Shown: positions 18,164 to 46,598 of the stretch, one piece after another
Numbering within the stretch: position 1 is the first letter of the stretch
Layout of the letters: the number at the start of each line of letters is the position of its first letter
NCBI GenBank assembly: GCA_029582165.1
Contig: CM055874.1
Coordinates: 46,871,769 to 46,935,768 of the forward strand
Length of the DNA: 64,000 nt
Origin: Portulaca oleracea
Lineage: Eukaryota > Streptophyta > Magnoliopsida > Caryophyllales > Portulacaceae
Direction: 5' to 3'
Notes under the pieces: generated by a model
What the model was told of the DNA's origin: nothing
Seen by the model: only the letters and a program-made list of their open reading frames with translations
Databases searched by the model: none
Translations under genes and position numbers: made by a program

Positions 18164-19500
18164 CCAAAAATTGGTGGGAGGTGCCACACATTTCTAACAA
18201 CTGACTAGAAGGGGATCACTTTTTTTTAATGCACACGAAGGGGACCACATCTTCAAAGAACTGGCTGCTGGGTGATTTTCCGACCATTTTGACTGAATGT
18301 CGGCGATGTATATATGAAAAGATAGAAATACCCCTATGTTTTATCAAACAATTGCTGGGAAGTGTGATATATTTCTAAAACTGACTGAACGGTGACCACT
18401 TTTTTCACACCTCTTCTCTGCACTCTTTCCTCCCCCAAATATCAATACAACTCCACCCATCAAAACCATAAACAAAACCATCGTCTTCTTCTTCTTCTTC
18501 ATTCTTCCACCACCCGACCACCACCACAACCACCAATCCAACCGCCAACAACACCACCATCACTCAATTCGGCACTCAGCCACCACCGAGAACCACCACA
18601 GCGATTTTTAAATCAAACCACAATCTAAGTTTGACACAACCAAGCACAAATCCTTCTCCTCATTCCATCAACATGTAAATTTCTCAAACTATTTTTTGTT
18701 TTTGGATCTTAACCCAACCCATCAAGACCTAATATCAAGCATGCAAGGAGAGAGAAGGAGAAACGGCGTCAGGTGCGGCATTTGATTGTCGTGGGTTTGG
18801 GCGTCGGTCAACATAGGTCGTTGGTAGCGGCCTTAGCGGCAGCTGCGGGTCTAGTCGCGTGAAATAGAGGATAAACGGGATGGTTCAAGATTGAGCTCGG
18901 GTGGTTATGGGGTTTTTAGGTAGCTGGAGTGGCTTTTTCTGGCGATAATTGGGTTGCAAAAATGGAGTCTAATTGTTGGTTATGGTATGGGTGTTGAATT
19001 CAGTTTGAATCAGGGAATGTGAAGATGGATTTGTGCTTGGTTGTGTCCAACTTAGATTGTGATTTGATTAAAATGGCCATCGTGTTCTCAGTGGTGGCTG
19101 AGCGTTGAGTGGTGGTGTTGGTTGGACTGGTGGTAGTGGTAGTGGTGGTGGTCGGGTGGTGGATGAATGAAGAAGAAGATGGGTTTGTTTATGGTTTTGA
19201 TGGATGGAGTTGTATTTGATATTTGGGGAGGAGAGAGTGCAGAGAAGAGGTGTAAAAAGAGTGGTCCTCGTCTAGTCAGTTTTTAGAAATATATAGCACC
19301 TCCTAGTAATTGTTTGATAAAACATAGGGATATTTCTGTCTTTTCATATATATATATATCGCCGGAATTCAGTGAAAACGATCGAAAAATCATCCATCAG
19401 CCAGTTCTTTGAAGATGTGGTCCCCTGCGAGTACATTAGAAAAAGTAGTCCCCTTTTAATCAGTTATCAGAAATGTGTGACACCTTCCAACAATTTTTTG
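18164..19500. mobile_element. Mutator-like non-coding element with about 480-bp inverted repeats
   Basis: Left arm about 18164-18660 and right arm about 19010-19500 are inverted copies. The outer ends are CAAAAATTGGTGGGAGGTG and its partner CACCTTCCAACAATTTTTTG. The middle of each arm holds the CTCTGCACTCT, CATCAAAACCATAAACAAA and CCACCACCCGACCACC blocks, and the inner end holds GACACAACCAAGCACAAAT. A loop of about 350 bp (18665-19010) is GC-richer but has no recognised ORF. The flanks are a 9-bp near-perfect direct repeat, and removing the element rejoins an RTE reading frame. I saw no transposase. Confidence 0.82.
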
Positions 19501-20116: not shown

Positions 20117-20297
20117 AATTTAGCTTGCCCTTTATCTAGTCCAAGTTCCCCACATCCTTCTCCATGTACTTGATTAATTGTATTTTATTTACAAATGAAA
20201 AAACTCTTTTCATTGACATGTTGTGCACATATATATTACTCATTTGTTATACATGGCTAGTGAAACATTATATGGGTAAGTCATTTGATAATTTAAC
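20117..20297 (+). repeat. Tandem duplicate left of the LTR element
   Basis: AGCTTGCCCTTTATCTAG through GTTATACATGGCTAG is repeated, with differences, at 23997-24150 on the other side of the LTR element. The LTR element went in at the junction between the two units. The right-hand copy runs directly into the Harbinger transposase fragment. Confidence 0.65.
20293..20297 (+). repeat. Target duplication TTAAC, left copy
   Basis: TTAAC immediately precedes TGTTGATG and is repeated exactly at 23993-23997 after the other LTR. Confidence 0.85.
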
Positions 20298-20912
20298 TGT
20301 TGATGTAAAATCGGTGTAGGATGGGAATTACTTAGATAAGCAAGAGAGTCGTAGGCGTACCCACTCTCCTTTGACTTATATACCAACCGTATATAGTCGC
20401 AGGATATAACTCTTGTCTTATAGGGAGGAAACTTATCAAACTCTCTTACCAAACTTAAGGAGTGTTGCAATCACAATATAAGAAAGGGTGCTTAAGGAGG
20501 AATGAATCTCCCATGAAAGAGGCAAATGACACCCTATTTATAATGCAAGAAATGCACTCTTGGATAGGGTGGATAAGAGGATGACTAATATGGATAAGGT
20601 AGTTAGAATATCCAACCAACCCTAACTACCCTTATCAACATAAGTAATATGTGTTAAAACAATTGTAAACATGTGAAAGACATGAGAAACAAGCTCTCTG
20701 CACATAATTTGATCTTGCCGAGGCTTGGCACGCCCGTGTCTAACCCGACACTCCCGTGCCAAGCACTCTTCACCCAAATTCAGGCCTTTTAGACCCGTGA
20801 AGTCATTAAATGACTTCCTTAGATCTCCTTAGCTTGTCTTACATACTTATACTTAGTTTTCCATGCCTTTTAAATTTACAAGACACACACATACACTTGA
20901 AAAACCTCAACA
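20298..20912 (-). repeat. 3' LTR of the non-coding LTR element
   Basis: The LTR begins TGTTGATGTAAAATCGG and ends AAAACCTCAACA. On the minus strand it contains TATAAATAGGG (plus-strand positions about 20525-20540). The adjacent internal sequence on the minus strand is a purine tract AATGGCGGAGGAT, which marks this as the 3' LTR of a minus-strand element. Confidence 0.9.
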
Positions 20913-21766
20913 ATCCTCCGCCATTTCGAGTGTATGGAATTCTTAACTTATATTCCAAAGACACCTTTGCCAATAAAACATGTTAAAACACACAACTCAA
21001 ACACACAAGAGAGTAAGGATCAGTTATCCATCATAGATAGTTTCTTGCGAATTGAACTTCTATGTAGTGAACATAATTACAAACGTCTGAATGTGATAGT
21101 TGACAAAGCATTGAACTTCACATCCTTGTTGAACATTTGGATACATCACACTGACATAACTTAACCAAATAAGAAACCTCAAAACTTATGACACTATTAT
21201 TTGCCATGTGTCCCATATCCTCTCGTAAGCAAATTAGAGCCAAGCCCATTAGCTCCTTGAGGCGGCTACACCTCTTGCTCACATAGGTAGACTGAAACTT
21301 ATATGCTCCTGTAATCGAGCCCCCATCCTTAATCAGTCTATTAAGAGTAAACACTCAACCTCTAAACATTACAGCTTAAGCACAACTCTTAACCTTGGGA
21401 TAGTTTTAGAATTTTGTGCTATCACAAACACTATCTAATAGAGTCACACTCCTAGAGCTTGGCATCAAGCCAAGTATCTAAAAGAGGCACTATTATTAGT
21501 GTTAGTTAAAATTGGGCTTATTCCTATCCCCCCTGATAATATAAAATTATCAAGTCCTTGTTTAGTCCTTTAACTAAAGGATTAAACCGAGGTCTTACTT
21601 AAATAACTTGAAGATCTCGAAAACAGTGACCTACTTCATTATTGACCAATAAGGATCACTAGATAAAACCATATCTTTCTATGATCATTATTAAACTTTG
21701 AAGGTAGTCATACTTAATAACACTTGTAACTTAAACTTGAATACTTATAATACATCGACTCTATAC

Positions 21767-22476
21767 ATACAACTAAACCATTGTATTATAGTTCAATACC
21801 GAAATCCATACAACTATACCGTTGTATTACTTCTCGATACTGAAAAAGAACTTAACTTTTGCAATCAATATAATTAAACCATCATATTATAAGCAATGAA
21901 TTTGAATACTTAAACTTTACTTGCAATCAATATGACTTAAATTTTCATATTGTAGGCTTATAGCAATCAATATTGTAGGTCTTAGCAATCAATATGATTA
22001 AACTATCATATTGTAAGCTCTTGACAATCAATATTGTAGGCTCCATAGCAATCAATATTGTAGATTATCTAGCAATCAATATGATTAAACTATCATATTG
22101 TAGGCTAGTATAATAATCAATATTGTAGGCTACTTAAGAATAACCTCACATTAAACCATGTACTTAAAGGAACCATAATCAACTTGTAAGTTTAATCTCG
22201 ACATGTAATTAAACCATTACATCTTAAACTAAGTATGTAATTAAACCATTACAACTTGCACTTAATATAAACTTTATTAAGTTGTCATGGAGAATAAATT
22301 CCTTACTTATACACTTATAGAATTTAAAACTCCATCTCATATATGTAATTAAACTATTACATATTGGACATTTGCTACAAAATATGTAACTAAAATTAAT
22401 TACATTTTACTTTATTTGGCCATATCATCTTATAGAGAATACTACTTAACTTATAATGTGAATAAACCTTCACATT
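21767..22476 (-). repeat. Array of about 13 mini-hairpins with a shared A-rich loop
   Basis: On the plus strand many perfect or near-perfect short stems flank loops of the form TAAACC or TAAACT. Examples: ATACAA/TTGTAT (21767-21786), ATACAAC/GTTGTAT (21808-21827), CAATATGA/TCATATTG (21928-21952, 21990-22013, 22077-22100), ACAT/ATGT (22148-22161), ATGTAAT/ATTACAT (22203-22222), TGTAAT/ATTACA (22236-22253), ACTTAATA/TATTAAGT (22260-22282), ATATGTAAT/ATTACATAT (22341-22364), ATGTAA/TTACAT (22384-22405) and AATGTGAA/TTCACATT (22455-22476). The stem sequence changes from unit to unit but stays self-complementary. Between them lie shorter CAATATTG units followed by TAGGC. In the element's own RNA (minus strand) the loop reads GGUUUA or AGUUUA. 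The function is unknown. Confidence 0.8.
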
Positions 22477-23372
22477 TACTTATGAAATATTCTCTTCATG
22501 ACTATATCCAAAATAAATAACCATGGATCTAAAATCGTACACTTGGCCAATTTAAACTTAATTAAATCCATCTATAATAACATAGTCATGGACTTATAAT
22601 CTTTTCAAATGTACATAAAATATACATTTCTTTTCTTGTAGCAAAACTTATACTTGAACATGCATACTTGAACAATACATATATCACTTAAATAATTCAT
22701 AGACTAACACTTATGACATGATCATCTTGTACTCAAATAAAACAATATTTTACATATTGTCAACTTATCTCATGATCAAAAAAAATTAGTCTACATAACT
22801 TAACATATGTATTAATAAAATCATGCAACGTCATAAATTATACCATGGATGTGACATGTCTAAAATAAATCATACAACTTAAACTTGATAATCACATATC
22901 CAAAAATTTATGATTTAATAAACTTGCCAATCAAGATTAACATCATTATTGACATGTCACATCCTGTATATTCATTGCCCATTATCGAAGCAGTCAAGGA
23001 TAAAACCAAGTGGTTGATGGTAGTTATTCAAATAACACATCATGCCTGGATAATCATGTACACACATAGCAAATCAACCATACAAAGATCTCATCATACA
23101 TGCTCCAAGATAATATAATCACGAAATAACCATCCGCATGTCAGCCAAGAATATCAATTATTAATCTTGCAAGTACACACCAAACAAGAGATCGAGCATA
23201 TTTGTTGTACGCAACCATTAATCATGGATTAAAAATTACTTATCTCATGATTGTGACTTAATCGGCCAAACTTGTAACCATCAAATTCATCCATGAATAT
23301 CTCTTTACTTGATCTTGATCTTGATCTTGTCATGCTTCGACTCAAAAACCCGATCATATATAAGTCGAAGAC

Positions 23373-23992
23373 TGTTGATGTAAAATCGGTGTAGGATGAG
23401 AATTTACTCGGGTATTCAAGTGAGTCGAAGGCATACCTTCTCTCCTTCGACTTATATAACTGCCGTATATAGTCTGCAGGATAAAACACTCTTGTCTTAT
23501 AGGGAGGAAACTTATCAAACTCTCTTACCAAACTTAAGGAGTGTTGCAATCACAATATAAGAAAGGGTGCTTAAGGAGGAATGAATCTCCCATGAAGGAG
23601 GCAAATGACACCCTATTTATAATGCAAGAAATGCACTCTTGGATAGGGTGGATAAGAGGATGACTAATATGGATAAGGTAGTTAGAATATCCAACCAACC
23701 CTAACTACCCATATCAACATAAGCAATATGTGTTAAAACAATTGTAAACATGTGAAAGACATGAGAAACAAGCTCTCTGCACATAATTTGATCTTGTCGA
23801 GGCTTGGCACGCCTGTGTCTAACCCGACACTCCCGTGCCAAGCACTCTTCACCCAAATTCAGGCCTTTTAGACCCGTGAAGTCATTAAATGACTTCCTTA
23901 GATCTCCTTAGCTTGTCTTACATACTTATACTTAAGTTTTCCATGCCTTTTAAATTTACAAGACACACACATACACTTGAAAAACCTCAACA
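23373..23992 (-). repeat. 5' LTR of the non-coding LTR element
   Basis: Same ends as the partner LTR. About 480 bp of the two LTRs differ at only a handful of positions. By contrast, the first roughly 130 bp on the plus strand (the U5 side) differ at many positions, including small insertions. Confidence 0.9.
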
Positions 23993-23997
23993 TTAAC
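23993..23997 (+). repeat. Target duplication TTAAC, right copy
   Basis: Identical to 20293-20297. Confidence 0.85.
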
Positions 23998-42876: not shown

Positions 42877-43505
42877 TGTTGGGTTAATTGTGTGGCGCCC
42901 AAATTATTATTTTGGTGGGATGAATTTTAGAAAGCCAAAATTATGCTTGGTGGGCAAATTTCATATAATATTGAAGATCTTCCACGATTGTGTTATTTAA
43001 GGAAAGATATTATATATAGTGGAAAATATTATATTTGTTACCAAACTGTGATGGGGCAATCACATGGAAATATAATATTACTTTGGAATATAGTATCAAA
43101 TTATTAGGAAACACATGTTTTTGGAAAGTTAATATTATTATTAACCACAATATTATGTTGTAGTCTTGACTATAAATAGGACCTAGGTGTTAGGTTTATT
43201 TGTATAACAATTGAGAGTTTTCATCTTATACCACAAGAGATTGACCTGTAATCTCTGTGTTCCTGAGGGAGTTGTGTGAGGCTCATCTGTGAGTGTTGAG
43301 TTCTCAGGTTGTAACTCTAGGGAGGTTGTGAGAGATTGTGGAGGTTTGGGAATCTCTAAAACACTGTTGTAATCCTCTGATAGTGCATCGTTCGTGGTTT
43401 TTTCCCAGTTTGGGTTTTTCCACGTTAATTCCTTGTGTTGAATCTTTATTTATTTTTCGCCCTTATTATTGTTTGTCTGCTAACTACGTCATGAGAATCC
43501 TAACA
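42877..43505 (+). repeat. 5' LTR of the gag-only copia element
   Basis: It starts TGTTGGGTTAATTG and ends GAGAATCCTAACA. TATA box in GACTATAAATAGGACC at about 43160. Its first 250 bp match the truncated 3' LTR at 45101-45350. Confidence 0.92.
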
Positions 43506-43507
43506 AG

Positions 43508-43519
43508 TGGTATCAGAGC
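43508..43519 (+). promoter_or_regulatory. Primer-binding site, initiator Met-tRNA
   Basis: TGGTATCAGAGC, complementary to the 3' end of plant initiator methionine tRNA, two bases after the LTR. Confidence 0.92.
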
Positions 43520-43557
43520 TTTGGTTGGAGCGTGGTTGATCTGCAGATTGAGAAGCA

Positions 43558-44330
43558 ATGGCGGGCGCTATTGTGAAGATTCCGGAATTCGATGGGAAAG
43601 ACTACGCATGGTGGAGGATGCGCGTTGAGGATGTGCTTCGCCAGCAAAAGTTGCATCTTGCGATGGGTGATAAGCCAAATGAGATGGAACAGAAGGATTG
43701 GGAAGAGCTTCATGGTCAGGCATTCAGTACGGTCAGGCTGACGCTAGCTCGGAACGTGGCTTTCAACGTCAAAGATCAGAAAACGACGAAAGACCTGCTC
43801 GAGGCCTTGCAAAACACATATGAGAAACCTTCGGCGGTGAACAAGGTATATGTGTTACGTCGTTTGTTTGAATTTAAGATGCAAGAGTCTGGTGATATGC
43901 ATGATAGTATGAATGAGTTGAATATAATACTATCAAAGTTAACCTCTGTGGGATTTAATTTCGACGATGAGATGAACACTAACATACTATTGGCCGCCCT
44001 ACCTAAGTCTTGGGAAAATTTCGTGACTTCTGTAACTTCTTCAACTAAGAAGGATGAGAAATTGAAGTTTGGGGAAATTAGAGACTTTGTCCTGAATGAA
44101 AGTATTCGCAGGAAAGATTCCGATGTGTCTGGGTCTTCGGGGGATGCTTTGACTGTCAGGGGTAGGAGAAATAGTGGGAGTTCGGGTCGGGGTCGATCAA
44201 AATCTAGAGGTCGAAACATGGAGCAAGTGTTGTGTTGGGCTGTGATAGAGGTCATTTCGTAGGGATTGTCCCAAACCCAAGAAGAGCGACCATAATGACC
44301 AGGACTCGGTATATTCTGTGAGGATTTTGG
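43558..44330 (+). pseudogene. Copia gag (UBN2-type), open but frameshifted at the zinc knuckle
   Basis: The open frame from the ATG at 43558 to 44262 begins MAGAIVKIPEFDGKDYAWW and contains MRVEDVLRQQKL, QAFSTVRLTLARNVA and LLEALQNTYEKPSAVNKVYV. Further on are LFEFKMQESGDMHDSMNEL, ILSKLTSVGFNFDDEM, LLAALPKSWENFV and a basic RGRSKSRGR tail. This is the usual copia capsid protein that packages element RNA. The zinc knuckle is visible only after a frameshift (LCWGCDR, then GHFVRDCPKPKK across frames, about 44230-44285), so the nucleocapsid part is not translated from the main frame. Confidence 0.85.
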
Positions 44331-44340
44331 TGATGCCCTA

Positions 44341-45012
44341 ATGTTAGTGTTGAGAAGTCGGAGGAGTTGGGTGATAGATTCGGGTGCTTCGTTTCACTCC
44401 TCGTCTAGTAGAGAGGCCTTTAGCAATTTTGTGAGTGGGAGGTTTGGCAGGGTTAAGCTTGCAAACGGTCACAACCTAAAGGTGCTAGGAAGAGGTGATG
44501 TGAACATTAAAACTTCTAAGGGTGGAACTTGGAGGTTGAAGAATGTTCGGTATGTCCCGGGTCTGACCAAGAACCTTGTATCTGTGAGTCAACTGGATGA
44601 GGAGGGGTTCACGACGAGATTTGAAGATGGTCATTGGAGGGTAACGAAAGGATCTCTGATAATTGCAAATGGCTGGAAAAAGGGGAAGCTATATTCTGTA
44701 ATTGATAACTCTAACATGCCGGTTCATGCTCGTCAAAGGCGTGTTAGCTTCTCTGATGAGAGAAGGGTACCAGAAACGAGGAGGTTTCCGGTCGAGGATA
44801 CGGGAACGGATGGTCAGCCGAGGAACGCATCTAACCTGCACGAGAATTCAACAAGTTCAACACGAGGTAAAGTCCCAATCCAAAATTCCCCTAAGTTGTT
44901 GACGATGATGCGTATGTCGAAGTTGCAGGGGCGTGATCAGTTCAAGTGGGAGCCTGTTGCAAAAAGAGGAGTTGATGGGAGGTCAACTGGAACCTCTGTT
45001 GATCTTTGCTGA
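44341..45012 (+). pseudogene. Copia protease fused to the pol C-terminal linker (deletion join)
   Basis: From the ATG at 44341 the frame reads WVIDSGASFHSSSSREAFSN, with the catalytic Asp-Ser-Gly of a retroviral-type aspartic protease. It continues KLANGHNLKVLGRGDVNIKT, LKNVRYVPGLTKNLVSVSQL and GSLIIANGWKKGKLYSV. After about residue 120 the text changes to HARQRRVSFSDERRVPETRR, the kind of linker found after integrase. The join marks loss of integrase, while RT and RNase H are missing further on. The frame stays open for 223 codons across the join. Confidence 0.8.
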
Positions 45013-45100
45013 ACAAGATCGAGATGAATGTACTAGAGGATTCCAAGACGAGTGGTGGTGGTGATGAACGACAAAGGCTACAATTTTCCAAGTGGGAGAT

Positions 45101-45350
45101 TGTTGGGTTAATTGTATGGAGCCCAAATTATTATTTTGGTAGGATGAATTTTGGAAAGCCAAAATTATGCTTGGTGGACAAATTTCATATAATATTGAAG
45201 ATCTTCCACGATTGTGTTATTTAAGGAAAGATATTATATAAAGTGGAAAATATTATATTTGTTACCAAACTGTGATGGGGCAATCACATGGAAATATAAT
45301 ATTACTTTGGAATATAGTATCAAATTATTAGGAAACACATGTTTTTGGAA
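45101..45350 (+). repeat. Truncated 3' LTR of the gag-only copia element
   Basis: It starts TGTTGGGTTAATTGTATGG after the purine tract and follows the 5' LTR closely through GTTTTTGGAA, then stops; about 380 bp are missing. The next DNA (45351-45958) has a short direct repeat ACTATTGATCTTTTA and no gene. Confidence 0.9.
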
Positions 45351-45967: not shown

Positions 45968-46598
45968 CGGTTTTGCTAAACGTCGCCCTGGGGGCGATGG
46001 TTAAGAGAGAATCTAAATTATTTTTTTTATTTGTAAAACCCTATATAATCTAATATATGTGATAAAAGATTACCTTTTTAATAAAATATACCTTATTATT
46101 TAATCAAATCTAGATAAATCTTATCATTACTTTATTAGCATTTTCTAATTATTTTCAATCTCGTAACCTATATCTTCCTTGATCCTATCAAGTTTTTTGT
46201 CTGATATTTACAAAGCGGAAGAGCATGGCAACTTTTATTTAATAAAAGAGTAAGTTAGTTAATTAATCAGTAATTATTTATCTCCAGCATTAATCGTACG
46301 TACTTGTGTTTCATGGGGTTGATTATAAGTATTACAGACGGTATTGTCTGAAATTAAAGGTGAATTTTGGGAAGGAAGAAAGGAGATTTTTTTTGAGGGA
46401 AATTTTTTGAAGGAAGAAAGGGAAATTGCTAATAAGGTAATGATAAGATTTATGTAGATTTGATTAGATAATAAGGTATATTTTATTAAAAAGATAATCT
46501 TTTATCACATATATTAGATTATATAGGGTTTTACAATTAAAAAAATAATTTAGATTATCTCTTAACCATCGCCCCCAGGGCGACGTTTAGCAAAACCG
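45968..46598. mobile_element. Mutator-like MITE with about 195-bp TIRs
   Basis: CGGTTTTGCTAAACGTCGCC at the left mirrors GGCGACGTTTAGCAAAACCG at the right, and both arms run about 195 bp (TAGATTATATAGGGTTTTAC and so on). The flanks TAGAATAAT (45959-45967) and TTAAATAAT (46599-46607) agree at 7 of 9 positions. The centre shows no transposase. Confidence 0.78.

What the first reader, a model, noticed from the sequence alone, without database searches (positions are those of the whole stretch)
21767..22476. Array of mini-hairpins with changing stems and a constant TAAACC/T loop inside a non-coding LTR element
About 13 short inverted repeats lie within 710 bp. The loop is nearly constant (TAAACC, TAAACT or a close variant), while the stems differ (ATACAA, CAATATGA, ATGTAAT, AATGTGAA, ACTTAATA, ATATGTAAT and others) and each keeps its own complement. 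Simple tandem repetition would copy the stem together with the loop. Here both stem arms change together, which looks like selection for structure or a hairpin-copying mechanism. In the element's transcript (minus strand) the loops would read GGUUUA or AGUUUA. Possible roles (packaging, dimerisation, protein binding, small-RNA production) are inference. I know of no described system with this layout.
Basis: partly seen in the sequence, partly recalled or inferred. Interest (0 to 1): 0.85.

Follow-up and report, generated by a model that had tools for sequence, protein, structure and literature searches.

The report
Hairpin array in coding-less retrotransposon family
A plant jumping element that codes for no protein carries about a dozen small RNA hairpins with different stems but nearly the same loop, a pattern kept in its other genome copies and perhaps used to be recognised and packaged by another element's proteins.

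Summary
Inside a non-coding LTR element (20298-23992, TSD TTAAC, transcript probably minus strand), 12 non-overlapping perfect hairpins lie in 710 bp (shuffle mean 2.5, maximum 8). Of 18 TAAACC/T sites in the internal region 6 sit on stems of 5 bp or more, against 0 of 76 with even 4 bp outside the element. Part is tandem duplication, so the 13 hairpins reduce to about six stem designs. The 1.13 Gb genome holds at least 40 copies; eight taken with flanks have LTR pairs 94-99.7% identical and no long frame. Across 40 copies, private changes break pairs at least as often as they keep them. Inherited changes tend to keep pairing in the minus-strand RNA (tree 20:8 against 57:71, p=0.012; once per state 10:8 against 19:41, one-sided p=0.06), not in a plus-strand RNA. 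One pair shows A-U, G-U and G-C states. Hairpins have relatively fewer inherited changes than linkers (p=0.015) but not than flanks (p=0.50). Best reading: a cis-acting RNA array, perhaps multivalent packaging sites for a helper Gag; the partner is inferred.

The parts
20298..23992 (-). non-coding LTR retrotransposon (non-autonomous), 3.7 kb
   Evidence: LTR pair 96% identical, TSD TTAAC on both sides, longest stop-to-stop frame touching the internal region 106 aa, partly in an LTR, ten frames without a Pfam match above cut-off
23373..23992 (-). 5' LTR (transcript orientation); its U5 end resembles type B
20298..20912 (-). 3' LTR; its U5 end is of type A
20293..20297 (.). target-site duplication TTAAC
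   Evidence: direct reading
23993..23997 (.). target-site duplication TTAAC
   Evidence: direct reading
23613..23621 (-). TATA-box-like TATAAATAG in 5' LTR
   Evidence: direct reading, (the 3' LTR copy is printed); motif recalled
20913..20926 (-). polypurine-tract-like AAATGGCGGAGGAT before the 3' LTR
   Evidence: direct reading; motif recalled
21767..22476 (-). hairpin array
   Evidence: present in 40 genome copies
21767..21786 (-). H1, loop GGUUUA on the transcript, 7 bp with one G-U
21808..21827 (-). H2, loop GGUAUA here, GGUUUA in 26 of 40 copies
21866..21889 (-). H3, 9 bp with two G-U on the transcript in this copy
21928..21952 (-). H4, 8 bp, 9-nt loop (exception)
21990..22013 (-). H5, loop AGUUUA, 9 bp
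22077..22100 (-). H6, same stem as H5
22147..22162 (-). Hx, weak hairpin, loop GGUUUA; innermost pair is T-T, not paired, in 28 of 40 copies
22203..22222 (-). H7, loop GGUUUA, 7 bp
22236..22253 (-). H8, loop GGUUUA, 6 bp
22260..22282 (-). H9, 8 bp, 7-nt loop AAGUUUA
22341..22364 (-). H10, loop AGUUUA, 9 bp
22384..22405 (-). H11, loop AAUUUU (exception), 8 bp on the transcript with one G-U
22455..22476 (-). H12, loop GGUUUA; pair 22458/22473 is A-T in 16, G-C in 15, A.C (G-U on minus RNA) in 8 of 40 copies, gap in 1
21968..21975 (.). palindrome CAATATTG (unit without hairpin tip)
22029..22036 (.). palindrome CAATATTG
22053..22060 (.). palindrome CAATATTG, can pair with 22118-22125 around H6
22118..22125 (.). 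palindrome CAATATTG

Best explanation
The array is a cis-acting RNA structure of a coding-less LTR retrotransposon family. In the minus-strand transcript it folds into about a dozen short hairpins that show the loop RGUUUA (R = A or G) on stems whose sequence hardly matters. Lineages that kept moving tended to keep the pairing (shown, moderately); the likely reason is that the loops are repeated binding sites for one protein, most plausibly the Gag/nucleocapsid of an autonomous helper, so that the element's RNA is packaged and reverse transcribed in the helper's particles (inferred). The array grew by tandem duplication of hairpin units, after which stems drifted apart, mostly by single changes through G-U intermediates (shown in part).
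For: Hairpin excess and loop constancy. In the strand-symmetric scan, allowing G-U of a minus RNA lengthens stems at 21774 (0 to 7), 21875 (2 to 9), 22152 (4 to 5) and 22225 (1 to 2); G-U of a plus RNA lengthens only 21583 (0 to 1). Pair probabilities with span 600: the pairs of all 13 hairpins lie at 0.33-1.0 on minus, and H1, H3, H4, Hx, H7 and H8 are lower on plus. Covariation among ten units of the element: cells paired 88.9%, score 0.597 against shuffle mean 0.199, 0 of 500 shuffles (rows were chosen as hairpins, so this is inflated, and 33 of 500 shuffles reach the number of pairs with both sides changed). Between 40 copies, strand-neutral set of 99 pairs: tree events keep:break 20:8 on internal and 57:71 on terminal branches for a minus RNA (p=0.012), 4:24 and 39:89 for a plus RNA (p=0.10, in the other direction). 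Stem plus loop have shared:private changes 28:83 against 90:140 in linkers, p=0.015 (28:88 against 91:140, p=0.0057, with palindromes and the earlier stem set). H12 pair shows A-T, G-C and A.C in 16, 15 and 8 of 40 copies. Family recently mobile and coding-less: LTR identities 94-99.7% in eight copies, matching 5-bp TSDs in three of these and in the window.
Against: No protein partner or helper was identified. Copy-level tests are moderate and not independent: counting each state once gives one-sided p=0.06 (shared by 3 or more copies) or 0.04 (4 or more), and repeated changes at one site inflate the tree count. The shared:private ratio of hairpins does not differ from that of the flanking internal sequence (28:88 against 195:516, p=0.50; stems alone p=0.59); flank private changes may be inflated because copies were chosen by array similarity, but that was not tested. 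Inherited breaks exist in H6, Hx, H8, H9 and H11. Fold z-scores are strong on both strands in 40 of 40 copies and do not favour minus (mean -6.4 minus, -7.5 plus). With span 100, H3, H4 and Hx hardly form on minus (0.15, 0.14, 0) and Hx forms better on plus; H9 is more probable on plus with either span. H4 and H11 lack the loop. In yeast Ty1 the packaging region lies within 580 nt of the RNA 5' end (PMC4974528); here the array begins about 900 nt downstream of the 5' LTR.
Confidence: 0.4

Rival explanations
1. Neutral origin: tandem duplication of a few hairpin units, plus polymerase template switching that re-copies one arm from the other, makes and keeps palindromes without any function.
For: Part of the array is a tandem repeat of period 61/87 and 24; palindromes CAATATTG look like units that lost the hairpin tip. 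Template switching is known to homogenise inverted-repeat arms (PMC8604942, passages read). In the pair of composite units around H5 and H6 the two linker arms differ together in sequence and length. Hairpins are no poorer in inherited changes than the flanks, relative to private ones.
Against: Reading the pair table of 40 copies, changes inside stems are nearly all single substitutions; no whole-arm conversion was seen. The bias of inherited changes holds for a minus RNA and not for a plus RNA, which a DNA mechanism would not give. Loops are never inverted on a stem, though this is weak: PMC8604942 saw spacer inversions only with arms above 9 bp, and the arms here are 6-9 bp.
Confidence: 0.29
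2. Hairpins act as double-stranded RNA: a source of, or a shield from, small RNAs that silence the element.
For: A composite structure of 27 pairs with internal loops around H6, nearly always kept between copies.
Against: Most hairpins are 6-9 bp, shorter than plant small RNAs (recalled); dsRNA function needs no constant loop. No small-RNA data here.
Confidence: 0.1
3. DNA-level inverted repeats: paired half-sites for a dimeric DNA-binding protein or cruciform formation.
For: Arms are exact inverted repeats in most units; both strands fold well.
Against: Half-site sequences vary while the spacer is constant, the reverse of what a dimeric binding site would show; G-U tolerance favours one strand.
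Confidence: 0.08
4. A structural RNA role other than packaging: stability, nuclear export or dimerisation through a host RNA-binding protein or the four palindromes.
For: Same structural evidence as for the best reading; palindromes are proposed to mediate Ty1 RNA dimers (PMC4974528 section 7).
Against: No partner known either; not separable from packaging with sequence alone.
Confidence: 0.13

Closest known systems
Dispersed packaging-signal stem-loops with a shared loop motif (hepatitis B virus -RGAG-, satellite tobacco necrosis virus AxxA)
   Same: Several short stem-loops in one RNA with a shared loop motif (PMC7612645 and PMC6475782, passages read).
   Different: There they are dispersed in a coding viral genome and tied to a capsid protein in vitro; here they form a dense array in a coding-less plant retrotransposon and no binding protein is known. 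For STNV-1 the authors of PMC6475782 weigh against a role in vivo.
Non-autonomous plant LTR retrotransposons (TRIM, LARD, BARE-2)
   Same: LTRs, TSD, no gag-pol found, many copies, recent movement.
   Different: The passages read name no hairpin array (PMC6696364); at 3.7 kb it falls in the TRIM size range given there (up to 4 kb), below LARD (above 4 kb).
Ty1/Ty3 cis-acting packaging region
   Same: Structured RNA in the transcript of an LTR retrotransposon, recognised by Gag (PMC4974528, abstract and section 7).
   Different: Ty1 signals sit in the first 580 nt; Gag binds a pseudoknot there, whose role in packaging could not be shown. No constant-loop array is mentioned in that section.

Membership tests
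Non-autonomous LTR retrotransposon (TRIM/LARD kind) | two LTRs with TG...CA ends and a short target-site duplication | tested here: met
   LTRs start TGTTGATG and end CTCAACA on +, TSD TTAAC; TSDs also in L075, L078, L081
Non-autonomous LTR retrotransposon (TRIM/LARD kind) | no gag-pol coding | tested here: met
   no frame above 174 aa in eight 7.7-8.0 kb stretches holding copies, flanks included
Non-autonomous LTR retrotransposon (TRIM/LARD kind) | polypurine tract before the 3' LTR | tested here: met
   AAATGGCGGAGGAT on the minus strand next to the LTR; judged by eye
Non-autonomous LTR retrotransposon (TRIM/LARD kind) | tRNA primer-binding site after the 5' LTR | tested here: not met
   no TGGTATCAGAG-like site read just after the 5' LTR on the minus strand (motif recalled, other tRNAs not tried)
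Copia superfamily | related gag-pol proteins or an identified autonomous partner | tested here: inconclusive
   copia-like frames of the window give no significant tblastn match in the element (best E 0.10); partner not found, because the genome search answered only once
Packaging-signal-mediated assembly | multiple stem-loops sharing a loop motif in one RNA | tested here: met
   (predicted folds, no RNA probed)
Packaging-signal-mediated assembly | loops bind the capsid or Gag protein and loop loss impairs assembly | not testable with these tools
   no helper protein known
Ordinary tandem repeat | all units derive from one period with stem and loop copied together | tested here: not met
   true for H3-H6 with palindromes; H1/H2, H7/H8/H10, H9 and H12 have other stems with the same loop

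The most novel reading that the evidence does not exclude
A protein-less LTR retrotransposon hijacks a helper by carrying a dense, multivalent array of about a dozen hairpins that nearly all present the same hexaloop RGUUUA, with stems free to drift by compensatory change: a concentrated packaging-signal array in a plant retroelement.
Probability: 0.3. Interest if true: 0.75.

Novelty: new variant of a known kind. Interest (0 to 1): 0.5.

Why it matters
How coding-less LTR elements get their RNA chosen by a helper's particles is little known (my view), and the sites of Gag binding are not precisely defined even in yeast Ty elements (PMC4974528 section 7). A repeated loop with free stems, present in at least 40 copies in one genome, names one short motif that can be tested directly.

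Tried and rejected
Relatives outside the genome: none in plasmids or phages, none in viral or prokaryote contigs with four element patterns; a loose palindrome pattern gave 34 stretches with one match each (L001-L034), taken as chance and not used. Rfam: three weak matches, all below the families' gathering scores, rejected. Pfam: only matches below cut-off, rejected. A frame of the LTR found no homologue. No tRNA genes in the window. A paper on plant LTR families with atypical ends (PMC5659011, abstract and passages) was looked at because of the TGTT/AACA ends; it has no hit for hairpin or stem-loop and was set aside.

The idea that the fold z-score shows the strand: rejected, both strands fold far better than shuffles in 40 of 40 copies (12 shuffles each). 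Composite structure around H5 (palindromes pairing across): linkers not kept between copies (GT 7, TG 7, AA 6, CA 8 of 40); around H6 nearly always kept (CT 6 of 40 is the main break).

The first counts of pair-keeping changes (on 30 copies; on 40) used pairs defined on the window copy with minus-strand G-U allowed, which favours the minus strand (21:5 against 65:65, p=0.0046; 10:6 against 19:39, one-sided p=0.03). They were redone with a strand-neutral rule, and those weaker figures are the ones to use. One alignment left out copies on the other strand and was replaced. One partition-function run timed out and was redone on a shorter stretch.

Full report
What is there. The finding lies inside an LTR element at 20298-23992. 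Its LTRs (20298-20912 and 23373-23992) are 96% identical, begin TGTTGATG and end CTCAACA on the + strand, and are flanked by TTAAC on both sides. On the minus strand a polypurine-like AAATGGCGGAGGAT precedes the LTR that ends at 20912, and each LTR holds TATAAATAG (motifs recalled), so the transcript most likely runs on the minus strand. No long reading frame is present, Pfam gives nothing above cut-off for ten frames, and copia-like frames of the window do not match it significantly. No tRNA primer site of the common Met type was read after the 5' LTR.

The hairpins are real. Counts, shuffles and the loop test are given in the observation check. The loops on stems all face one way; the consensus on the transcript is RGUUUA (one search shows the ten rows; one has GGUAUA). 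By sharing of sequence the units fall into H1/H2 (a 41-bp tandem pair), H3-H6 with four tip-less palindromes CAATATTG (tandem units), H7/H8/H10 (nearly the same stem), and H9, H12 and the weak Hx: about six stem designs, with H11 close to the third group. This grouping is my reading of the repeats. Among ten units aligned by the loop, the covariation score and the cells changed on both sides exceed all 500 shuffles, while the number of pairs changed on both sides is reached by 33-34 of 500. These rows were picked because they are hairpins, so only the 18-site test is free of that choice.

Other copies. The genome search answered once: 1,134,683,706 bases in 63 contigs, 206 candidates of which 40 were scored, all 40 matching at 88-100% identity, the window itself included. 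I used all 40 (L035-L064 and, L065-L074). Eight were taken with longer flanks: LTR pairs are 94.4-99.7% identical (for L076, L080 and L082 over 300-414 bp only); TSDs match in L075, L078 and L081, match at 4 of 5 bases in L077 and L079, and were not resolved in L076, L080 and L082. Six of the eight have another LTR type (about 660 bp where the whole pair aligned) that shares with the window's LTR about 127 bp at the U5 end and about 22 bp at the other end, yet the core with the array is common to both types at 86-95%. Hairpins with TAAAC-type loops recur in all eight, with single hairpins lost here and there.

Do the copies show selection on structure? Changes private to one copy should be mostly neutral mutations after insertion; changes shared by several copies passed through transposition. 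With a strand-neutral set of 99 pairs: private states keep:break 19:41, states shared by 3 or more copies 10:8 (one-sided p=0.06; 10:7 and p=0.04 for 4 or more) for a minus-strand RNA; for a plus-strand RNA 22:38 and 5:13 (p=0.84). States seen in exactly two copies were left out. Events on a tree built without stem columns (L068 and L073 sit on long branches): internal branches 20:8, terminal 57:71 (p=0.012) for minus; 4:24 and 39:89 for plus. Repeated changes at the same site, perhaps by recombination between copies, inflate the tree count. Stems and loops have fewer shared changes per private change than linkers (28:83 against 90:140, p=0.015), but not fewer than the flanking internal sequence (28:88 with palindromes against 195:516, p=0.50). 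Per site, hairpins are lower than flanks in both shared and private changes, which may reflect the choice of copies by array similarity. Against the reading there are shared breaks in H6, Hx, H8, H9 (two pairs, one an added outermost pair) and H11 (two pairs). In favour, the H12 pair 22458/22473 is A-T in 16, G-C in 15 and A.C in 8 copies, one gap; the A.C state is a G-U pair in the minus RNA only.

How it most likely works. Shown: many hairpins, nearly one loop, one orientation, family-wide presence, recent mobility of a coding-less element (from LTR identity), and a moderate, strand-specific bias to keep pairs. Inferred: that the loops bind a protein, and that this is a helper's Gag/nucleocapsid which packages the RNA. 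Packaging is preferred over other RNA roles because a coding-less LTR element must be packaged by a helper and because shared loop motifs on different stem-loops are what dispersed packaging signals look like (HBV -RGAG-, PMC7612645, passages; STNV AxxA, PMC6475782, passages, whose authors doubt the role in vivo). It may work like such signals; it cannot be filed as one, since binding is untested.

Is it in print? Seven searches of the open-access library for LTR elements with hairpin arrays, palindromes, secondary structure, template switching or packaging listed nothing whose title or abstract start describes such an array in an LTR retrotransposon; two more served for comparison. Only listings and the named abstracts, sections and passages were read, and most subscription papers are not held.

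Verdict. A real, unusual and testable feature; the functional claim rests on moderate statistics from 40 copies of one genome.

Noticed in passing
23373-23491 and 20298-20423: The two LTRs of this element differ at 26 aligned places, 20 of them in the first 111 bp. The U5 end of the 5' LTR is 98-99% identical to type-B LTRs (printed for L075 and L078), that of the 3' LTR only 81-84%, so the element looks like a hybrid of two subfamilies.
   Followed up: partly
20723-20764 and 23802-23843: A GC-rich hairpin in both LTRs, upstream of the TATA-like site (loop TAACCC on +, GGGUUA on the transcript; coordinates read); 150-nt stretches over it have fold z -5.8 and -7.7 on minus. Type-B LTRs have 8-bp hairpins with loops such as TAACTT and ATACCC.
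   Followed up: partly
22914-23314: Most of the stretch between the core and the 5' LTR finds no match in other copies; the gap there is about 540 bp in L081 against 400 here.
   Followed up: no
18221-19444: Large inverted repeat with arms 83-90% complementary in several pieces, perhaps a foldback element.
   Followed up: no
45968-46598: Large inverted repeat, arms 92-95% complementary.
   Followed up: no
42877-45350: Direct repeats of 250 bp (98%) around frames that look to me like copia gag and protease (not searched); a possible deleted copia element.
   Followed up: no
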